From positions 4,510,322 to 4,574,321 of the forward strand of contig NZ_CP036273.1 in the NCBI RefSeq assembly GCF_007747215.1: a stretch of 64,000 nt of DNA, in the 5' to 3' direction. Every line of letters begins with the position of its first letter. Position 1 is the stretch's first letter. This stretch comes from Urbifossiella limnaea. Its GTDB lineage: Bacteria; Planctomycetota; Planctomycetia; Gemmatales; Gemmataceae. Below are positions 18,901 through 37,810 of this stretch, piece after piece. The translations under genes and the position numbers were made by a program. Under the pieces are notes generated by a model. That model was not told the DNA's origin. It saw only the letters and a program-made list of their open reading frames with translations, and ran no database searches.

Positions 18901-19488
18901 ATGGCGCGAGGGATGCAGTTCATGGCGGTATGCGAAGACCTGCTCGCCGTCTTGTCTCGGATCGAGCGGCACGTGCCGTTGACTTACCGCTTGTGCTTCG
19001 CCCCCACGCCGGAGCCGACGACGTGGGACGCCGCTGCTGCAATCAATGACTTGGGGGTGGCAGTCGAGGGCGGGGCGAACAATCAGAAGCGTTACTTAGT
19101 CATGCCGACTGCGAGTCCGTTTACGCCTTACGTGACAACCTTCCCCAACGGCGAAACGCTGGGCCGCGTGTACCCGGAGGGTAACCCGGACTCGGTGGTT
19201 CTTACGCCGGCGGGTCTGTACTCCGACTGGTGCATCGTGGGCGGCAACTTCGGCGTCGCGCTGCCAAAACCCTCCGGGTACGACTTGGTGGCAGCGTTGC
19301 AGCGAGCGGTTCGCGCCGAGTTCCGCAAGGTGGGAACGTGCTACGTCGGTCCGAAAGCGTATGACTTGGCGGAATCGGGCGTGCGGCTGGCGATTAGTAC
19401 GAGGGCAGACCCGAAGTCGGACCTCCGGCTGCCCAAACGGAAAAGGCACGCCGAACCAGGTAGCGTGTTGTCAAGTGGCGATTCGTGA
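18901..19488 (+). CDS. cassette gene 2: hypothetical protein, 3' end altered by IS110-group insertion
   Basis: A 195-residue protein of unknown function, with no membrane segment and no motif that I recognise. The start follows GGCGGAGG just after the GTTCGGC core. The sequence reads AEP at 19450-19457 and then enters the insertion sequence, adding GSVLSSGDS before a stop. In cassettes 1 and 3 the equivalent position continues as EPxAAADGPRx through the attC-like site, so the original C-terminus was probably that tail. The insertion changes only the last residues and the protein may still work. Confidence 0.65.
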   Translation: MARGMQFMAVCEDLLAVLSRIERHVPLTYRLCFAPTPEPTTWDAAAAINDLGVAVEGGANNQKRYLVMPTASPFTPYVTTFPNGETLGRVYPEGNPDSVVLTPAGLYSDWCIVGGNFGVALPKPSGYDLVAALQRAVRAEFRKVGTCYVGPKAYDLAESGVRLAISTRADPKSDLRLPKRKRHAEPGSVLSSGDS

Positions 19489-20472
19489 CGCGAACACCGG
19501 GTCGAACGGCTTTCGGCTCTTGAGCACCCCGTAGCAGATCATCACCAGCTTCCGCATGCACGCGCCCACCGCCTGCATCTTCGGCTTCCCGGCCGCCACC
19601 AGGCGGTCGAAGAAGGCCTTGAGGACGGGGTTGAACCGGATCGCGGTCAGCGTCGGCAGGTACAGCGCCTTCCGCAGCCGGGCGTTCCCGGACTTCGACA
19701 GCCGGGTCCGCTTCTTGACGCTCGTCCCGCTCGTGAACTCCCGCGGCGACAGCCCGCAGTACGCCGCCGCGGCCTGGGCGCTCGGCACCCGGGCGACCGG
19801 CGGCAGCTCGGCCAGCACGGTCGAGGCGGTCTGCGACCCGACCCCCGAGATGCTGACCAGCAGCTCCGCGTCGGCGGCGAGCGCCGGGGTGGCTGCGATG
19901 AGCGCGTCGGCCGCCTTCTGCATGGCGTCGGCCTCCTTGCCGAGGAGCTTCACGACGCGGGCCACCGACTTCCGCGCGGCCGGGGTCAGGAGCGGGGATT
20001 CGAGCCGGGCCTTCTCGCTCGCGGCGAGAGCCCGGAGGTCGTCCCGCCGGCGGACGAACGCCTGCAATTCCCGGACTTCCGCGGTCGGCGGGGTCCAGGC
20101 GGGCGGGGCCTCGTCGCGGGTGTAGGCGGCGATCAGCTGGGCGTCGGCCTTGTCCGTCTTGTTCCGCCGGCCGCGCATCACCCCGGCGTACTTGACCCGG
20201 GTCGGGTTGATGACGCTGACCGCCCGGCCGGCGGCGTGGAGGTGGCGGGCGAGGGCGTCCTCGTACCCGCCGGTGGACTCCATCCCGTAGCGGGCCGTCG
20301 CCCCGGCCCCGTGGCCGTCGGCCCAGGCGAGGACGGCGGCGAACCCGCCCGCGGTGTTGGGGAACGCCTTCACCCGGGCCTTCCCGTCGGGGGTCAGGAG
20401 GCAGGCGTCGAAGGTGGCCTTGGAGACATCGATCCCGATCACGGCGGTCGCGGTCGCGGCGGTGGTGCCCAC
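19471..20472 (-). CDS. IS110-family transposase (DEDD, RNA-guided recombinase)
   Basis: A 333-residue protein. The DEDD catalytic residues are visible: VIGIDVSKATFD (first Asp), YGMESTGGYE (Glu) and KTDKADAQLIAAY (Asp pair). The C-terminal transposase_20 domain is at about 195-290 (LLVSISGVGSQTASTVLAEL, then AAYCGLSPREFTSG and RLSKSGNARLRKAL). The start is a GTG at 20472 with GGGGAGGG upstream. Family length is typical, so the gene looks intact. Members cut and join DNA as guided by a non-coding RNA from the same element. Confidence 0.93.
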   Translation of the reverse strand: MGTTAATATAVIGIDVSKATFDACLLTPDGKARVKAFPNTAGGFAAVLAWADGHGAGATARYGMESTGGYEDALARHLHAAGRAVSVINPTRVKYAGVMRGRRNKTDKADAQLIAAYTRDEAPPAWTPPTAEVRELQAFVRRRDDLRALAASEKARLESPLLTPAARKSVARVVKLLGKEADAMQKAADALIAATPALAADAELLVSISGVGSQTASTVLAELPPVARVPSAQAAAAYCGLSPREFTSGTSVKKRTRLSKSGNARLRKALYLPTLTAIRFNPVLKAFFDRLVAAGKPKMQAVGACMRKLVMICYGVLKSRKPFDPVFASRIAT

Positions 20473-20664
20473 GGTGTCCCTCCCCTCATGCTCACGGATG
20501 CGGGGTCGGCTCGGGGGAGTCGCCCGCCGGGTAGCGTCCGAGGTCGAGGAGCACCGGCGGTCGGGCCGCCACCTGGTTCACGAGGTCGGAGCCTCATCCG
20601 CTGCATGCGGTTGATCCGACCGCCGGGCTGTCGCCTCAACGACCCCGGTAGGGTAACATGTGAG
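20473..20664 (-). ncRNA. candidate bridge RNA of the IS110-group element
   Basis: This 192-bp leader upstream of the transposase holds no gene. It contains a possible guide loop: GGTTC (antisense to GAACC of the left target half) and CGCTGCA (same sense as the right target half), flanking a short hairpin GAGG/CCTC at about 20575-20607. The matches are only 5 and 7 bases, so chance is possible. The assignment rests mainly on position, since IS110-group bridge RNAs are encoded here. Confidence 0.35.
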
Positions 20665-20767
20665 CAGCTGCAGCAGACGGCGGGGGCATGTAGCATTTCT
20701 GGAGTTCAAAGCTCACTCGGCCCCCGCCGCTGCTGAGCATGTCGTTCGGCCACCGGAGGCGCAGCGA

Positions 20768-29579: not shown

Positions 29580-29939
29580 CGGAGTACAAGCGAGCTGCGA
29601 AGGGGACGGCGCGACAGCAGAGGCTGGGGCCGAACCCGTCGCTGCAGCAGACCGCCAGCTCATTGGCGATTCCAACCGGGCTCGTGTACCCGGCAGGTGA
29701 CAGGCGGCTCGGCGGCTGCTGAGCTTTATGACTATGAAGCCGCGGTCCTGTCAACTCAAGCGGGCCGGGTTTTCCAGGGTGTTTTGCTCGCCCCACGGCT
29801 GACCCGCGGTCAGCGCGTTCCGTCGAGGCAAGCACCACCCCATCCCCGCCGGCCGCGGGGCTCGTCACGTCAGGCGGTCGGGGGTCGCCGTCGGGTCGCA
29901 CTCGACTATTCGGGCTGCGGTCCGGGTCGCGCCCGGGCG

Positions 29940-30061
29940 CCGAGGGACCGGCCCACTAACTGGTATCCGCCGCGCCGCCCATTCGTTCGGCCACCACTCC
30001 GGCGGCAGAGCCGCCTTCGGGTACACAAAGCTGCGGGCTGGCACGACTGGGTCCCGTTGGC
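29940..30061 (-). ncRNA. candidate bridge RNA guide loop of IS1111 element 1, cut by IS4 element B
   Basis: The same layout as in element 2: outer stem 29971-29980 with 30035-30045, guide segment at 29984-29995, hairpin GGCGGC/GCCGCC (30001-30006 with 30010-30015, loop AGA), second guide at 30023-30032. Compared with element 2 the hairpin has changed on both arms, and one outer-stem pair becomes a G-U wobble only if the RNA is read from the minus strand, the transposase strand. The nested insertion begins at 30062, at the base of this structure. Confidence 0.45.
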
Positions 30062-31558
30062 CAGGCCATTCACGGTGACGCATCCCGGTCGTAAGCCGTC
30101 CGCTGGCAGGGACTTGGCCAAGCCAGGGAGAGGGCGCGCCCATGCTGTTCGGTGGGGTCTTCGAGCGGTTCCTAGAGGAGAGCCCGCTCAGCGTGATGTC
30201 CCGGGCGACCATCGAGCACGCCCTCTCGGCCTCGGCCCTCGACGCGCTGTTCGACCGGACCGCCGAGCGCGGGTACACCCGGGAGTTGCTGTTCTCCACG
30301 ACGGTCGATCTGATGACCCTGGTGGTCGGCGGCAAGGCCCTCCACGTCCAGGCCGCCTACCGGCACCTGCGGGACCGCGTCCCGGTCACCCTCAAGTGCG
30401 TCTACGACAAGCTCCGGAACATCGAGACGGGCGTGTCCGCGGGGCTGGTCGCGCACGTGTCGGGCCGGTGCGAGGGGCTGATCACCGCGCTGGGCGGGGG
30501 GTGCAAGAGCCTGCTGCCGGGCTACCGGGTGCGGGTCCTCGACGGCAACCACCTGGCCGCCACCCAGCGGCGGCTGGGCGTCACCCGGGGGCACACCGCC
30601 GGCCCCTTGCCCGGGCAGAGTTTGGTCGTGCTCGACCCGGCCCTGATGCTGGTCACCGACATCGTCCCGTGCGAGGACGCCCACACCCAGGAGCGGGCGC
30701 TGATCGACCAGATTGTGCCGCTGGTGCGGGAGCGGGACGTGTGGGTCGCGGACCGCAACTTCTGCACGGCGGAGTTCCTGTGTGAGGTGGCCGCCCGGCG
30801 GGCCTACGTCGTCATCCGACGCCACGGGAACCTGAGCGTCGAGGCCGAAGCCGGGTACGGGGCCGAGGTCGCGACGGACCGGGGCTGGGTGGGCGAGCGG
30901 CGGGTCTGGGTCTGCTGGGGTGGGGCGCGGTTGGTGCGCCTGCGGCAGGTGCGGGTGCGGCTGCGGGCGCCGACCGCGGACGGGGACGCGGAGGTGGAGA
31001 TCCTGACCAACCTGCCGGCGAAGGTGCCGGCCAAGAAGGTGGCCGAGATCTACCTCAAGCGGTGGAAGATCGAGGGGGCCTTCCACGAGTTGACAGTCGC
31101 CTTGAACTGTGAGGTGAACACCCTGGGGTACCCCAGGGCCGCGCTGTTCGGGTTCTGCGTGGCGGTGGCCGCGTACAACGTGCTGGCCGTACTGAAGGCG
31201 GCCCTGCGGGCGGTGCATGGTGAGAAGAAGGTGCAGGAGGAGGTGTCGGGGTATTACCTGGCGCTGGAGTGGGCGATGGTGTACGCGGGGATGATGATCG
31301 CCCTGCCCGCGTCGGAATGGGAGGCGTTCGGTCCGATGCCCAGCCCGGAGTTGGCCGGCCACCTCCGCGAGTGGGCGGGCAAGGTCGACCTTGGGAGGAT
31401 CAAGAAAGCGCCGCCCCGGAAGCCGACGAGGACGGCGACCCGACGGATCAAGGACAAGAGCCCACATGTTTCCACGGCCCGGTTGCTCGACGAGGGGAAG
31501 AAGACCCGTCAGGCGAAAGTCAGCCGGAATCCGTGAGTCTCACACCGTGAATGGCCTG
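30062..31558 (+). mobile_element. IS4-family insertion sequence B with 11-bp target duplication, nested in IS1111 element 1
   Basis: A 1497-bp element. Inverted ends are CAGGCCATTCACGGTG at 30062 and its exact complement ending at 31558. The 11-bp duplication GTCCCGTTGGC flanks it at 30051-30061 and 31559-31569; element 2 has this sequence once (at about 36090), which shows the empty site. The same duplication length as IS element A supports the IS4 family. Confidence 0.93.
30142..31536 (+). CDS. IS4-family DDE transposase
   Basis: A 464-residue transposase. DDE residues are visible in VRVLDGNHLAA, VWVADRNFCTA and YLKRWKIEGAFHEL. It shares many blocks with the transposase at 24253 (TRELLFS, PCEDxHxQERxL, LGYPRAALFGF) and differs in the C-terminal basic tail. 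It fills the element between its inverted ends and appears intact. Confidence 0.92.
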   Translation: MLFGGVFERFLEESPLSVMSRATIEHALSASALDALFDRTAERGYTRELLFSTTVDLMTLVVGGKALHVQAAYRHLRDRVPVTLKCVYDKLRNIETGVSAGLVAHVSGRCEGLITALGGGCKSLLPGYRVRVLDGNHLAATQRRLGVTRGHTAGPLPGQSLVVLDPALMLVTDIVPCEDAHTQERALIDQIVPLVRERDVWVADRNFCTAEFLCEVAARRAYVVIRRHGNLSVEAEAGYGAEVATDRGWVGERRVWVCWGGARLVRLRQVRVRLRAPTADGDAEVEILTNLPAKVPAKKVAEIYLKRWKIEGAFHELTVALNCEVNTLGYPRAALFGFCVAVAAYNVLAVLKAALRAVHGEKKVQEEVSGYYLALEWAMVYAGMMIALPASEWEAFGPMPSPELAGHLREWAGKVDLGRIKKAPPRKPTRTATRRIKDKSPHVSTARLLDEGKKTRQAKVSRNP

Positions 31559-31612
31559 GTCCCGTTGGCTCTACCCCACCATCACGGGCGAGGTCTCACA
31601 CCGACGCCGCCG

Positions 31613-32677
31613 TCAGGCGGCCGTCGCGGCCGGTGCCGGGTCGGGGTCGGCCCGCCACGGCTGGTTGTCCCGGAGCATGGCCCAGCACCGGACCAGCACC
31701 CGCCGCGCGAGGGCGACGACCGCCTGCTTCCGCCGCGCCTTGCCGCGACTCAGCCGGTCGAACACCGCCCGCGCCCACCGGTTGTACCGGAGCATGCACC
31801 ACGCGCACTGCACCAGCAGCTTCCGCAGCACCGCCGGCCCTCGCTTGGTGATCCGGCCGCGGCGGTCGTCCTCGCCCGACTGGAACTGCCGCGGGACGAG
31901 CCCGCCGTACGCCCCGACCTGCCGGCCGTTCCGGAACCGCGTCGGGTCGTCGAGGTGGGCCACCACCGCCTCGGCCGTCCGCGGCCCCAGACCCGGCACC
32001 GTGTCGAGCAGCCGGACGCGGGCGTCGGCCTTCCCGATCGTGTCCAGCTTGGCCTCGGCGACCGCGACCAGCTCGTCGGCCTGGCGGTAGGCCGTCAGGG
32101 CCAGGTCGAGGAGCCCCCGCCACAGGTCGTCCGGCTCGCACTCGGCCAGCGGCCGGGCGAACTGGGCGATGCCCGCGAGCCCGGCGGCGGTCCACGCCTT
32201 GGCCCCGCGCGGGGCCGGCAGACCCTGGCCGACGAGCACCGCCCGGATGCGGTTCTGGGCGGCGACCCGCTGGGCCACCAGCGCCTGCCGGTGGGCGATC
32301 AAGGCCCGCCACTCCCGCACCCGCTTGGCCGGGACGACGACCGTGGGGAGCTGGCCGAGCGCCTCCAGTTGGGCGAGGCGGAGGGCGTCGTCCCGGTCGG
32401 ACTTCCGCTTGGTGTGCTTGTACTTCCACGCCTCGGCCGCGGTGTTCGCCACCTTGCACGGGATGCCGAGCTCGCCGCACAGGTCGGACACCCACCCGGC
32501 GAGGGTACACGCCTCGATGACGACCACCGCCGGGCCGGTGGCGCGGATGAGCCGCTCGACCTCGGCCCGGGAGGTGGTGATCGTGCGGAACTCGGCGGCG
32601 GCCGTCACCTTGTCGTAGGTGCAGGACACGCACTTGTACTTCCCCAGGTCGATGGCGAGAATCGTGGTGCCGGTCAT
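31613..32677 (-). CDS. IS1111-group transposase (IS110 family), copy 1
   Basis: A 354-residue DEDD transposase. First Asp in ILAIDLGKYKCV, Glu in VVVIEACTLAGWV, Asp pair in KRKSDRDDALRLAQL. The C-terminal transposase_20 region is RLLDTVPGLGPRTAEAVVAH, then GAYGGLVPRQFQSGEDD and GRITKRGPAVLRKLL. It is nearly identical to the copy at 36161 and has the same length and ends. The gene is intact although the element's non-coding end has been separated from it. Confidence 0.92.
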   Translation of the reverse strand: MTGTTILAIDLGKYKCVSCTYDKVTAAAEFRTITTSRAEVERLIRATGPAVVVIEACTLAGWVSDLCGELGIPCKVANTAAEAWKYKHTKRKSDRDDALRLAQLEALGQLPTVVVPAKRVREWRALIAHRQALVAQRVAAQNRIRAVLVGQGLPAPRGAKAWTAAGLAGIAQFARPLAECEPDDLWRGLLDLALTAYRQADELVAVAEAKLDTIGKADARVRLLDTVPGLGPRTAEAVVAHLDDPTRFRNGRQVGAYGGLVPRQFQSGEDDRRGRITKRGPAVLRKLLVQCAWCMLRYNRWARAVFDRLSRGKARRKQAVVALARRVLVRCWAMLRDNQPWRADPDPAPAATAA

Positions 32678-33485
32678 GATGCGCTCCTCGGGGTGAAGGG
32701 GGCGACTACCCCCACGATACACCGCGGCTTGCATCAGTTCTTTCGTTCGGCGGCGGCGGCAGACCACCATTGCTCGTGGGTATCGTGAGACCATATGCCA
32801 CACAGCGAGCGACACCGAACGGAACGCATTGGTTGGTTGCGTGCGGCCGTCATGGGTGCGAACGACGGCATCGTATCGACGGCGAGTCTCATCTTGGGCG
32901 TAGCAGCTGCACAGGCGACCAACCAAGGCATCTTGGTCGCTGGGGTAGCCGGATTGGTCGCCGGAGCGATGTCGATGGCGGCTGGTGAATACGTCTCGGT
33001 CAGTTCTCAGGCTGATACCGAACAGGCCGACCTCGCCCGCGAACGCCAGGAACTCGCGGCCGATCCATCGGGCGAACTTGCAGAACTGACGGCGATCTAC
33101 GTCAGGCGCGGCCTCGATCCGTCGCTTGCGAACCAGGTCGCCGAGCAACTCACGGCCCATGGCGCATTGGCCGCCCATTCCCGTGACGAACTCGGCACTT
33201 CCGAGTTGCTCGTTGCGAGGCCCATCCAAGCGGCACTCGCCTCGGCAGGGACATTCGCGGTTGGCGCGGCGCTACCCTTATTGGCGGTGGTGATTGCTCC
33301 TGGTGTGTATCTCATTCCCCTGGTCGCCGGAGCCTCAATAATATTCCTCGCGACTCTGGGCGGTCTTGCAGCGTTCGTCGGCGGCGCGAGCGCGACGAGA
33401 GGGGCAATCCGAGTCACGTTTTGGGGTAACCGTTCACAGGCCGGGGTAGCCTCGGAGCGCCCTTTGGGTTACTCTTCCGCTCGGC

Positions 33486-34889
33486 ATGGATGCACCCCCG
33501 CCTGTTTCGGCTGACGTTCTGGCCGCGCTGCCGGCCGAAGTCCTGGCCCTGATCCAGTGGCAGGCCCGGCAGATCGCCCAACTCCAGCGCGAAGTCGCGG
33601 AGTTGAAGGCCCGACTCGACAAGGACTCCACCAACTCCTCGCTGCCACCCTCGTCGGCTCACCCACACGCCAAACCGGTCGTGCCCAAGCCCAGGTCCAA
33701 GCGGCGTCGCGGCGGGCAGCCCGGGCACGACAAGCACGAACGGGCGTTGATCCCCGTCGACGACTGCCAGGCCGTCATCCCGTGCGTGCCGACGGCGTGC
33801 CGCAAGTGCGGTCGGGCGCTCGCCGGCACCGACCCGGAGCCGGTCCGCCACCAGGTCTGGGAACTCCCCGAGATCGAGCCGGTCGTCACCGAGTACCGGC
33901 GGCACCGGCTCGTCTGCGCGTGCGGCGTCTCCACCTGCGGCGCTTTGCCGATGGGCGTGCCCACGGGTCAGGCGGGGCCGCGGCTCATCGCGTTCGCCGG
34001 CGTCTTGATGGCCTGCTTCCGCCAGTCGAAACGCCGGGCCGCCCAGTTCCTGGGTACGATCCTCAACCAACCCGCCAGCGCCGGCTGGATGGTCCTGCTG
34101 CAGGGCCGGTGTGCCGAGGCGGTGCAACCGGCCTACGACGACCTCGCCGCGAGGCTGCCCGCACAACCCGTGCTCCACATCGACGAGTCACCGACCAAGG
34201 AAGGCCCGTCGAAGGGATGGGTCTGGACCTTCGTGGCCGACACGTTCACGTTCTTTGCCTGCCGCACCAGCCGCGGGGCCGAGGTACTCGACGACCTCCT
34301 CGGCGCGGACTACGCGGGCACCATCCACTGCGACCGGGCGAAAATGTACTGGCGGTTCGGCCGGCTGCAGTGGTGCTGGGCCCACTTGAAGCGCGACTTC
34401 CAGGCCCTGATCGGCGACCCGTGCCACACCAAGAAGCGGCTCGGCCACGACCTGATGCGACCGACGAAGGAACTATTCGCCCTCTGGAAACGGGTGCGCG
34501 ACGGAACGCTGAGTCGTGCCGAGTTCCGACGCCGCATGCACCCGATCCGCGACACCGTGGAGGTGCTCTTGCTGCGCGGTTGGTGCAACGCACTGACGCA
34601 CGGCGTCTGCCGGGAACTGTGGGAGCACCGCGCGCGCCTCTGGACCTTCGTGGACGTGGCCGGCGTGGAGCCGACCAACAACGCGGCCGAGCGGGCGCTG
34701 CGGCACGCGGTCATCTGGCGGAAGCTCTCCTTCGGCACGCAGTCGGCGGCCGGTAGCCGGTTCGTCGAGCGGCTGCTGTCGGTCATCGAGACCTGCCGCC
34801 GCCAGCGCCGCAACGCCTTCGCCTGGCTGACCGAAGTGGTGCGGGCGCACGTTCGGCGTGAAGCTGGGCCGTCGCTGTTGGCGTCATGA
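33486..34889 (+). CDS. IS66-family transposase (TnpC-like)
   Basis: A 467-residue protein. It has the IS66 N-terminal coiled coil (QREVAELKARLDKDSTNSS, then LPPSS), the basic linker with a zinc-finger region (ACRKCGRAL), and the DDE core: VLHIDESPTKEG, TIHCDRAKMYWRFG, and EPTNNAAERALRHAVIWRK carrying the final Glu. Length is typical of IS66 transposases without insertion. The stop overlaps the end of the convergent cargo gene at 34884 by six bases. Confidence 0.93.
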   Translation: MDAPPPVSADVLAALPAEVLALIQWQARQIAQLQREVAELKARLDKDSTNSSLPPSSAHPHAKPVVPKPRSKRRRGGQPGHDKHERALIPVDDCQAVIPCVPTACRKCGRALAGTDPEPVRHQVWELPEIEPVVTEYRRHRLVCACGVSTCGALPMGVPTGQAGPRLIAFAGVLMACFRQSKRRAAQFLGTILNQPASAGWMVLLQGRCAEAVQPAYDDLAARLPAQPVLHIDESPTKEGPSKGWVWTFVADTFTFFACRTSRGAEVLDDLLGADYAGTIHCDRAKMYWRFGRLQWCWAHLKRDFQALIGDPCHTKKRLGHDLMRPTKELFALWKRVRDGTLSRAEFRRRMHPIRDTVEVLLLRGWCNALTHGVCRELWEHRARLWTFVDVAGVEPTNNAAERALRHAVIWRKLSFGTQSAAGSRFVERLLSVIETCRRQRRNAFAWLTEVVRAHVRREAGPSLLAS

Positions 34890-35136: not shown

Positions 35137-35570
35137 CTATCTTGGGATCGGGAGCCGCACGGCAGTGCCGTCGGGCGCGATCAAGACGCTGCTCTTCTGC
35201 TTGGTTAGTTTCAAGTCAGGGTTGGTGAAGACGGCCATGTCGCTGTCCGGGCCGACGCTGAATCGTAGCTCGCCGGAAGGGTGCGTGTGAGCGATCACCC
35301 GATCGGCATCTACGACGACGACTCCGTCCCTTCCACCGAGGCGGAGCCAGCGCTGGTTCCCGATTCGGATGAGCGCAACTTCCCGGCCAGTCGCGACAGT
35401 CAGTTCGCCCATCAGTTGCGCTGAGGCCGAACCAGGGGGCATGAGAACGTCGCCCTTTTGCAATGCCGTAATCAGCTCCCGATGCGTGATGTCGAGTTGG
35501 AAACGCTCCGCGTAAGTGTAGTCGGCAATACTCTTGGGATCGCGAAGTGTGCCGAGCCGTGAACCATTAC
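35137..35570 (-). pseudogene. IS66 cargo: JAMM/JAB-domain C-terminal fragment, 5'-truncated
   Basis: The frame is open across the right end of the IS66-like element, so its natural start is missing; inside the element the first ATG is in VLMPPGSASAQL. The C-terminus carries a JAMM metal-protease signature: RVIAHTHPSGELRFSVGPDSD (H-x-H-P-S-G followed by a spaced S-x-D/SD). JAB-type domains of this kind end polymorphic toxin proteins, and a small gene follows. The fragment is probably the toxin tip of a larger gene captured at the element end. Fewer than 140 residues remain. Confidence 0.5.
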
Positions 35571-35969
35571 CGTTTTGGGGAGCACTCGCGATGGCTCTCA
35601 CTGCCGGTGTCGGAGCCCTATTCGGGACGGTCGCGTGATTTGTTGGTGTCCGTGTGAGTAGACGACCCAAGCTCAAGACGCCGAACCCTACGCTGCAGCT
35701 GACTCGGCCCGCCTCAGCGCATCTGTGACATCGAGCTGTCACGGGCGGGCCGGGCAGCTGAGCTTTTTGACTATGAAGCCGCGGTCCTGTCAACTCAAGC
35801 GGGCCGGTTTTTCCAGGGTGTTTTTGCCTTTCCGGTCGCTGACCCGCGGTTGAGGGTCGAGCGAGGCAAACACTACCCCGTCCCCGCCGGCCGCGGGGGC
35901 TCTCCACGTCAGTTGGTCGGGGGTCGCCGTCGGGTCGCACTCGACTATTCGGGCTGCGGTCCGGGTCGC

Positions 35970-36110
35970 GCCGGGGCGCCGAGGGACCGGCCCAGTAACT
36001 GGTATCCGCCGCGCCGCCCATTCGTTCGGCCACCACTCCGGCGGGTCACCCCGCCTCGGGTACACAAAGCTGCGGGCTGGCGCGACTGGGTCCCGTTGGC
36101 TCTCCCCCCA
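35970..36110 (-). ncRNA. candidate bridge RNA (target-guide loop) of IS1111 element 2
   Basis: The fold read on the minus strand: outer stem 36074-36084 with 36010-36019 (one bulge), then guide 1 (complement of 36062-36071, AGCTTTGTGT), hairpin 36050-36055 with 36040-36045, guide 2 (complement of 36023-36034, CGTTCGGCCACC). Guide 1 matches the left target half AGCTTTTTGT at 9 of 10 bases. Guide 2 is complementary to TGTTCGGCCACC at 11 of 12. The two guides address opposite strands and overlap at GT. This is the layout of the target-binding loop in IS110-family bridge RNAs. The donor loop was not resolved. Confidence 0.5.
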
Positions 36111-36160
36111 CCATCACGGGCGAGGTCTCACGTCACGTCCGAGGGCTCACGCCGCCGCCG

Positions 36161-37225
36161 TCAGGCGGCCGTCGCGGCCGGTGCCGGGTCGGGGTCGGCC
36201 CGCCACGGCTGGTTGTCCCGGAGCATGGCCCAGCACCGGACCAGCACCCGCCGCGCGAGGGCGACGACCGCCTGCTTCCGCCGCGCCTTGCCGCGACTCA
36301 GCCGGTCGAACACCGCCCGCGCCCACCGGTTGTACCGGAGCATGCACCACGCGCACTGCACCAGCAGCTTCCGCAGCACCGCCGGCCCTCGCTTGGTGAT
36401 CCGGCCGCGGCGGTCGTCCTCGCCCGACTGGAACTGCCGCGGGACGAGCCCGCCGTACGCCCCGACCTGCCGGCCGTTCCGGAACCGCGTCGGGTCGTCG
36501 AGGTGGGCCACCACCGCCTCGGCCGTCCGCGGCCCCAGACCCGGCACCGTGTCGAGCAGCCGGACGCGGGCGTCGGCCTTCCCGATCGTGTCCAGCTTGG
36601 CCTCGGCGACCGCGACCAGCTCGTCGGCCTGGCGGTAGGCCGTCAGGGCCAGGTCGAGGAGCCCCCGCCACAGGTCGTCCGGCTCGCACTCGGCCAGCGG
36701 CCGGGCGAACTGGGCGATGCCCGCGAGCCCGGCGGCGGTCCACGCCTTCGCCCCGCGCGGGGCCGGCAGCCCCTGGCCGACGAGGACCGCCCGGATGCGG
36801 TTCTGGGCCGCCACCCGCTGGGTGACCAGCGCCTGCCGGTGGGCGATCAGCGCCCGCCACTCCCGCACCCGCTTGGCCGGGACGACGACCGTGGGGAGCT
36901 GGCCGAGCGCCTCCAGCTGGGCCAGCCGGAGGGCGTCGTCCCGGTCCGTCTTGCGCTTCGTGTGCTTGTACTTCCACGCCTCGGCCGCGGTGTTGGCGAC
37001 CTTCACCGGGACGCCGAGCTCGCCGCACAGGTCGGACACCCACCCGGCGAGGGTACACGCCTCGATCACGACGACCGACGGGCTCGTGCCCCGGATGAGC
37101 CGCTCGACCTCGGCCCGGCTGGTCGTGATGGTGCGGAACTCGGCGGCGGCCGTCACCCGGTCGTAGGTGCACGACACGCACTTGTACTTCCCCAGGTCGA
37201 TGGCGAGAATCGTGGTGCCGGTCAT
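36161..37225 (-). CDS. IS1111-group transposase (IS110 family), copy 2
   Basis: A 354-residue DEDD transposase nearly identical to the copy at 31613; differences are few (for example KTDRDDALRL for KSDRDDALRL and GVPVKVANTAA for GIPCKVANTAA). Catalytic residues are in ILAIDLGKYKC, VVVIEACTLAG and TDRDDALRLAQ. The ATG at 37225 is preceded by GAGGAGCG. The whole element looks complete, so this copy is the likelier source of movement. Confidence 0.93.
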   Translation of the reverse strand: MTGTTILAIDLGKYKCVSCTYDRVTAAAEFRTITTSRAEVERLIRGTSPSVVVIEACTLAGWVSDLCGELGVPVKVANTAAEAWKYKHTKRKTDRDDALRLAQLEALGQLPTVVVPAKRVREWRALIAHRQALVTQRVAAQNRIRAVLVGQGLPAPRGAKAWTAAGLAGIAQFARPLAECEPDDLWRGLLDLALTAYRQADELVAVAEAKLDTIGKADARVRLLDTVPGLGPRTAEAVVAHLDDPTRFRNGRQVGAYGGLVPRQFQSGEDDRRGRITKRGPAVLRKLLVQCAWCMLRYNRWARAVFDRLSRGKARRKQAVVALARRVLVRCWAMLRDNQPWRADPDPAPAATAA

Positions 37226-37315
37226 GATGCGCTCCTCGGGGTGAAGGGGGCGACTACCCCCACGGTACACCGCGGCTTGCATCAGTTCTTTCGGCCACCG
37301 GAGGGCTCACCTGGA

Positions 37316-37810
37316 GTGGACGAGGCGTTCGCAACGGAACTGGATGCCATCCCGTGGCTGAGCAACATCGGCCAGCCAGTCACAGCGGTGATGCCGTGGC
37401 CAGTCATCCCAGTGACTTCCTGGGGCGAGGCGTTCGCATGCTTCGATGACGACTGGGAGGCTCTGAAGGGCGCGGCGCGGGATCGGCTGACGACGTTCAT
37501 GCGCGACCGTCGCAACCGCGGGATACGTGACTTTGACTGGAACGAGATGGTGCGGGCGATCAAAGCCCGGGTCCTGACCCGGCTGGACGAGACTGTGTGG
37601 CGGCCGTTCGGTGAGCGGCACGGATTGACGCCGGTGTTTGCCGACCTGGTCGCTAGCGACGTTCGGTTAGCGGCCTTAGAGTACGAGACGCGACGCATTG
37701 CGGGACGGCCGGAGTTCTTCCGACTGCTGCTCCAGGTTTACCGTGCCGGGCACTTTCCGTGCGGGTGGTGCGCGGGCACGTGGCCGGACGGGACGCTCGT
37801 GATCTACTGA
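37316..37810 (+). CDS. cassette gene 11: hypothetical protein
   Basis: A 164-residue soluble protein with no recognised domain. The start is a GTG at 37316, after CACCGGAGG that follows the restored core. The N-terminus is Pro- and Trp-rich (IPWLSNIGQPVTAVMPWPVI), the middle is helical and basic (FMRDRRNRGIRDFDWNEMVR), and the C-terminus has CGWCAGTW. No attC-like site follows, so the array ends here or its last site was lost. Confidence 0.6.
   Translation: MDEAFATELDAIPWLSNIGQPVTAVMPWPVIPVTSWGEAFACFDDDWEALKGAARDRLTTFMRDRRNRGIRDFDWNEMVRAIKARVLTRLDETVWRPFGERHGLTPVFADLVASDVRLAALEYETRRIAGRPEFFRLLLQVYRAGHFPCGWCAGTWPDGTLVIY

What the first reader, a model, noticed from the sequence alone, without database searches (positions are those of the whole stretch)
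35970..36110. IS1111-group element may use an RNA guide that reads the attC-like core
The non-coding end of the uninterrupted element contains CGTTCGGCCACC and ACACAAAGCT on either side of a hairpin, enclosed by a 10-bp outer stem. Reading the transposase strand, one guide matches the left target half AGCTTTTTGT at 9 of 10 bases and the other is complementary to the right half TGTTCGGCCACC at 11 of 12, on opposite strands and overlapping at GT. The restored target at the insertion is AGCTTTTTG-TTCGGCCACC. IS110-family bridge RNAs use exactly this two-guide loop, and a group of IS1111 elements is known to target attC sites. The guide here would explain that targeting.
Basis: partly seen in the sequence, partly recalled or inferred. 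Interest (0 to 1): 0.85.

Follow-up and report, generated by a model that had tools for sequence, protein, structure and literature searches.

The report
Jumping gene RNA-guided to integron sites
A bacterial jumping gene in a planctomycete appears to encode a small structured RNA whose two short guide stretches match the recombination sites of integron gene cassettes, and comparing 17 guide-target pairs shows that guides change along with targets; it is a new member of the recently described bridge RNA/seekRNA elements, not a new mechanism.

Summary
Confirmed, and largely right. The element (window 35770-37289, minus strand) is an IS1111-group insertion sequence. It sits exactly in the G^TTCGGC core of a genuine integron attC site; the genome has integron integrases and unoccupied attC arrays. 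The region downstream of the transposase gene encodes a conserved RNA structure with one guide on each side of an internal loop. Guide 1 pairs with the variable half of the attC target, guide 2 with the conserved GCCGAA(C) half. Across 17 distinct guide-target pairs from Gemmataceae, own pairs score 124.5 against 101.2 +/- 5.0 when shuffled (p 5e-5; same p when shuffled within clades). RNA stems show compensatory changes. A relative in Acaryochloris (47.5% identical transposase) has a non-attC target and correspondingly different guides.

The principle is published: seekRNA/bridge RNA in IS1111 and IS110 elements, including attC-targeting ISKpn4 and ISPst6 (PMC11187229). This is a distant Gemmataceae lineage. 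No transcript or activity data exist here.

An unasked finding may be the more interesting: the same window holds an IS110-type element whose relatives insert in the opposite arm of attC, with guide matches of their own.

The parts
35770..37289 (-). IS1111-group insertion sequence, complete copy, 1520 bp
   Evidence: Ends set by comparison of four genomic copies and unoccupied attC sites
36161..37282 (-). DEDD transposase gene, 373 aa (354 aa from the inner ATG at 37225)
   Evidence: PF02371 E 2.4e-26, PF01548 E 1.8e-13; motif GLVPRQFQSG; similar to ISCro4 and IS621 chains in PDB
36001..36089 (-). Conserved core of the predicted bridge RNA/seekRNA (89 nt)
   Evidence: Covariation in 19 homologues; model R1 hit 88.2 bits
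36063..36071 (-). Guide 1, AGCTTTGTG, pairs with target CAAAAAGCT (transposase strand), 8 of 9
   Evidence: Permutation tests
36020..36034 (-). Guide 2, GGTGGCCGAACGAAT; GCCGAAC equals the left target half plus core C
36010..36019 (-). Outer stem, 3' side
36074..36084 (-). Outer stem, 5' side (one bulged A)
36040..36055 (-). Hairpin between the two guides (GGCGGG-GTGA-CCCGCC)
   Evidence: replaced by different but self-complementary hairpins in homologues
35940..35950 (-). Conserved GAATAGTCGAG; ATAGTC equals the right end of the element; possible donor guide (not established)
37270..37283 (-). Left subterminal inverted repeat GATGCAAGCCGCGG
   Evidence: Sequence
35771..35784 (-). Right subterminal inverted repeat CCGCGGCTTCATAG
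   Evidence: Sequence
35788..35793 (-). TTGACA, conserved near the right end in homologues; possible -35 box of a circle-junction promoter (inference)
35680..35769 (+). attC site, R'' arm to the G of the R' core (target, first part)
   Evidence: GCCGAAC...GAGCTTTTTG palindrome; same pattern in unoccupied attC
37290..37295 (+). TTCGGC, remainder of the attC R' core (target, second part)
29731..32745 (-). Second copy of the same element, in another attC, split by another insertion sequence (about 30062-31557)

Best explanation
An IS1111-group insertion sequence of Gemmataceae makes, from the region downstream of its transposase gene, a bridge RNA/seekRNA. Two guides in one internal loop pair with opposite strands of the attC end (guide 1 with the variable half, guide 2 with GCCGAA), meeting at the core C. 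The DEDD transposase uses this to insert the circular element between G and TTCGGC of integron attC sites, always in the same orientation. Shown here: anatomy, targets, RNA covariation, guide-target covariation. Inferred by analogy: that the RNA is transcribed, binds the transposase and directs the reaction; the circular donor; the junction promoter.
For: IS1111-type transposase; four copies in this genome all in attC, same side and orientation; integron integrases and 35 attC-like ends, all on one strand; RNA covariation 0.546 vs 0.217 +/- 0.022 in shuffles; guide-target score 124.5 vs 101.2 +/- 5.0, p 5e-5, and p 5e-5 within clades; a retargeted relative in Acaryochloris with guides matching its non-attC target at 10/10 and 8/8; same principle shown by experiment for ISKpn4 and ISPst6 (PMC11187229).
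Against: No transcript or activity data. Guide 2 cannot be tested by covariation because its target half is nearly constant. L028 and L044 fit poorly (4.5 of 9), and guide 2 of L047, L040 and L028 departs from GCCGAAC. The donor loop expected for a bridge RNA was not established. Pairs are related by descent.
Confidence: 0.92

Rival explanations
1. The transposase recognises the folded attC hairpin or its core directly by protein, and the matching stretches are a by-product (for example a captured piece of attC) without function.
For: attC can fold; the left half is nearly constant.
Against: The two guides match opposite strands, sit on both sides of one covarying internal loop, and guide 1 changes with the target; the Acaryochloris relative has a linear non-attC target and matching guides.
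Confidence: 0.04
2. The right flank CNNNAAGCT is part of the element, so that the observed covariation is between the RNA and its own end (donor), not a target.
For: The flank is partly constant (AGCT) among copies.
Against: Unoccupied attC sites carry the same GAGCNNNNNGTTCGGC, and the flank continues into the attC palindrome in the copies with an intact right end that I inspected.
Confidence: 0.02
3. The apparent guide-target covariation reflects shared descent of two clades only.
For: The two clades differ in both guide and target length and sequence.
Against: Shuffling only within clades still gives p 5e-5, without near-twins p 2e-4, and each clade alone p 0.024 and 5.5e-4.
Confidence: 0.02

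Closest known systems
ISKpn4, ISPst6, ISPa25 (IS1111 elements that target attC; seekRNA shown for the first two; Siddiquee et al. 2024, PMC11187229)
   Same: IS1111-type transposase, downstream non-coding region, two guides matching top and bottom strand of the target in the same order, target at one end of attC
   Different: Host phylum and attC sequence; the best proteobacterial plasmid-borne relatives of this transposase are only about 28-33% identical. Exact position and orientation in attC were not compared.
IS621 bridge RNA (IS110 group; Durrant et al. 2024, PMC11208160)
   Same: DEDD transposase and RNA with two target guides in an internal loop
   Different: IS621-type RNA lies upstream of the gene and has a proven donor loop; here it lies downstream and a donor loop is not established
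IS110-family element of Acaryochloris marina plasmid pREC1 (WP_261891599.1)
   Same: 47.5% identical transposase, same end repeats, same RNA layout
   Different: Target is AAACC|CGAGATATGGA, not attC, and the guides are changed accordingly

Membership tests
IS1111 group | DEDD transposase with PF01548 and PF02371 and the motif GL-P----S(T)G | tested here: met
   GLVPRQFQSG in the protein, aligned with the SG of ISCro4
IS1111 group | Subterminal inverted repeats of 7-17 bp | tested here: met
   AAGCCGCGG (9 bp) near both ends, extended by ATG with a one-base offset
IS1111 group | Longer non-coding region downstream of the transposase gene | tested here: met
   391 bp downstream, at most 64 bp upstream
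IS1111 group | Insertion restores the target exactly, without target duplication | tested here: met
   Joined flanks equal unoccupied attC ends; copies 1 and L002 have four extra bases CGAA at the left end
seekRNA / bridge RNA | Structured RNA in the non-coding region with guides matching both strands of the target, top-strand match first | tested here: met
   order as in IS1111 elements of PMC11187229, taking the transposase strand as top
seekRNA / bridge RNA | RNA is transcribed, binds the transposase and is needed for transposition | not testable with these tools
   No expression or activity data
seekRNA / bridge RNA | Donor-recognising guides | tested here: inconclusive
   Complementarity to the left end no better than shuffles in most elements; good only in L046 and L113
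IS1111-attC group (Tetu and Holmes 2008) | Insertion at a fixed position and orientation in attC | tested here: met
   Four copies here, and the homologues with readable ends; agreement with the exact position used by that group was not compared
IS1111-attC group (Tetu and Holmes 2008) | Transposase in the same clade as ISPst6/ISKpn4 | tested here: inconclusive
   Low identity to all proteobacterial plasmid-borne relatives listed; ISKpn4 itself was not identified and no tree was built

The most novel reading that the evidence does not exclude
In Gemmataceae two distant RNA-guided element lineages, an IS1111-type and an IS110-type (27% identical over 257 residues), have each adopted attC as target and read its opposite arms, so that one attC can hold both.
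Probability: 0.75. Interest if true: 0.55.

Novelty: new member of a known kind. Interest (0 to 1): 0.45.

Why it matters
It gives natural evidence, from sequence alone, that the guides of IS1111-type elements set the target: related elements with changed guides at changed sites, and a distant relative retargeted from attC to a gene. It extends attC targeting to planctomycete integrons and supplies a set of natural guide-target pairs for testing mismatch tolerance. The pair of elements on opposite attC arms suggests that attC is a niche found more than once by RNA-guided elements.

Tried and rejected
Rfam scan of the region: nothing. Folding energy of the whole non-coding region: not unusual; only the 90-nt core is informative. 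The RNA model found no match in the 391 other planctomycete genomes sampled, so the set could not be enlarged. The donor-guide idea was tested and is weak. Covariation of guide 2 could not be tested, because its target half is nearly constant. Direct comparison with ISKpn4/ISPst6 was not possible: their records were not identified, and Tetu and Holmes 2008 is not held. Overlapping ORFs 35137-36036(-) and 36503-37810(+) have no Pfam support.

Full report
What is there. The window is 4510322-4574321 of a single-contig 7.80-Mb genome. The element at 35770-37289 reads on the minus strand. Its transposase matches the IS110-family Pfam models, carries the IS1111 motif GL-P----SG as GLVPRQFQSG, and resembles ISCro4 and IS621 in the PDB. 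Inverted AAGCCGCGG repeats lie near its ends. The longer non-coding region is downstream (391 bp), as in the IS1111 group (PMC11187229).

The target is a genuine attC. Beside the element is a 90-bp palindromic site beginning GCCGAAC and ending GAGCTTTTTG; TTCGGC resumes on the other side. The genome has two whole integron-integrase genes above the curated cut-off (29310 and 2055747) and a third, split one at 3787787-3788733. It has 35 matches to GAGCTTTNNGTTCGGC with at most one mismatch, all on one strand, 23 of them between 2202 and 2219 kb, against 6 matches of the reversed control pattern. The window itself has intact attC sites at 18.8-22.4 and 28.5-29.0 kb, spaced like cassettes. Four copies of the element occur in the genome, one beside an integrase gene, all in attC on the same side.

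The outer bases of guide 2 are, however, partly in the inner stem and match only this insertion.

The RNA. I aligned 19 homologous regions. RNAalifold recovers the outer and inner stems, with the two guides facing each other in the loop between. Of the cells, 92.3% are paired against 36-56% when slid; 13 of 19 pairs have compensatory changes; covariation is 0.546 against 0.217 +/- 0.022 in shuffles. The structure was derived from the same alignment, which favours it, but the effect is large. A covariance model finds the RNA in 13 of 95 Gemmataceae genomes, 6 genera, and in none of 391 other planctomycete genomes sampled.

Guides track targets. With one fixed register (9 positions counted from the AGCT end), own guide-target pairs score 124.5 against 101.2 +/- 5.0 for shuffled pairs, p 5e-5. 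Shuffling only within the two clades gives 110.0 +/- 3.35, p 5e-5; leaving out near-twins, p 2e-4; each clade alone, p 0.024 and 5.5e-4. Examples: L041, guide AGCTTGGG with target CCCAAGCT; L047, AGCTGGGTCG with CGACCCAGCT (10 of 10); L004 in this same genome, AGCGTTCTG with CAGATTGCT. L028 and L044 fit poorly. Guide 2 is nearly constant, as is the attC core it reads.

Retargeting. The nearest plasmid-borne relative, in Acaryochloris marina (47.5% identity), has two copies at AAACC|CGAGATATGGA, one of them inside a DDE transposase gene. Its RNA folds with an outer stem and an inner hairpin; TCCATATCTC pairs with GAGATATGGA at 10 of 10, and AAACCCGA equals the left half plus core at 8 of 8. Similar end repeats, different target, different guides. 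The outer copy's left flank differs between the two sites beyond AAACC, so the left half is supported by few bases.

How it most likely works. By analogy with ISKpn4, ISPst6 and IS621, the RNA binds the transposase, its guides pair with the two strands of attC around the core C, and a circular element is inserted. A conserved TTGAC about 20 nt inside the right end may be the -35 box of a junction promoter of the kind described for ISEc11 (inference). A donor loop is plausible (ATAGTC equals the right end) but not established.

What is known. seekRNA guidance of IS1111 elements, including two that target attC, is published; bridge RNAs likewise. New here are the planctomycete lineage, only about 28-33% identical to the best proteobacterial plasmid-borne relatives, and the natural covariation. 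I file it as a new member of a known kind.

A second element. At about 19459-20665 lies an IS110-type element with a 333-aa transposase, 27% identical to the first over 257 residues, and its longer non-coding region upstream. Its relatives in G023, G006, G007 and G091 have right ends abutting GGTTCGG(C) or TGTTCGGC, and left ends abutting TGCAGC(G), that is, the R'' arm of attC. The RNA stretch GAACCAGGT pairs with junction ACCTGGTTC in the window, G023 and G007; the G006 copies have GAACAAGGT and ACCTTGTTC, a one-base covariation. G091 has a mismatch (ACCCGGTTC). In G023 one attC holds both kinds of element (L022 and L115).

Limits. No expression data. Several homologues are from draft genomes and may be decayed. 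Sequence pairs are related by descent, which within-clade shuffling removes only in part.

Noticed in passing
window 19459-20665 (-); homologues L114-L127: IS110-type element with upstream non-coding region, inserted in the R'' arm of attC; relatives in G023, G006, G007 and G091 at the same arm, with a one-base guide-target covariation (GAACCAGGT/ACCTGGTTC versus GAACAAGGT/ACCTTGTTC).
   Followed up: partly
L022/L115 (G023) and L041/L126 (G006:C18): A single attC in G023 is hit by both element kinds, one on each arm; in G006 both kinds lie next to each other on contig C18.
   Followed up: partly
window 18.8-22.4 and 28.5-29.0 kb; genome 2202-2219 kb: Arrays of integron-type cassettes with attC sites all on one strand, in the window without an integrase gene nearby among the hits.
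   Followed up: partly
genome 29310-30251, 2055747-2056688, 3787787-3788733: Two whole integron integrase genes and one split one; a copy of the IS1111 element lies about 0.7 kb from the first.
   Followed up: no
window 32740-32752; L002 left end: Two of the four copies have four extra bases CGAA at the left end, which restores GTTCGGC at that junction; this could leave an attC-like core beside the element.
   Followed up: no
window 30062-31557 and 33486-34889: Another insertion sequence splits copy 1 of the element; an IS66 transposase (PF03050) lies between the two copies.
   Followed up: no
L055 (genome 4581976-4582221) and L056 (3891557-3891775): Further IS110-family transposases; L055 lies beside an attC at 4581725 but its ends were not worked out.
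   Followed up: no
L043 right end: A homologue with an attC-like left flank but an unrelated right flank, probably a later rearrangement; left out of the guide test.
   Followed up: no
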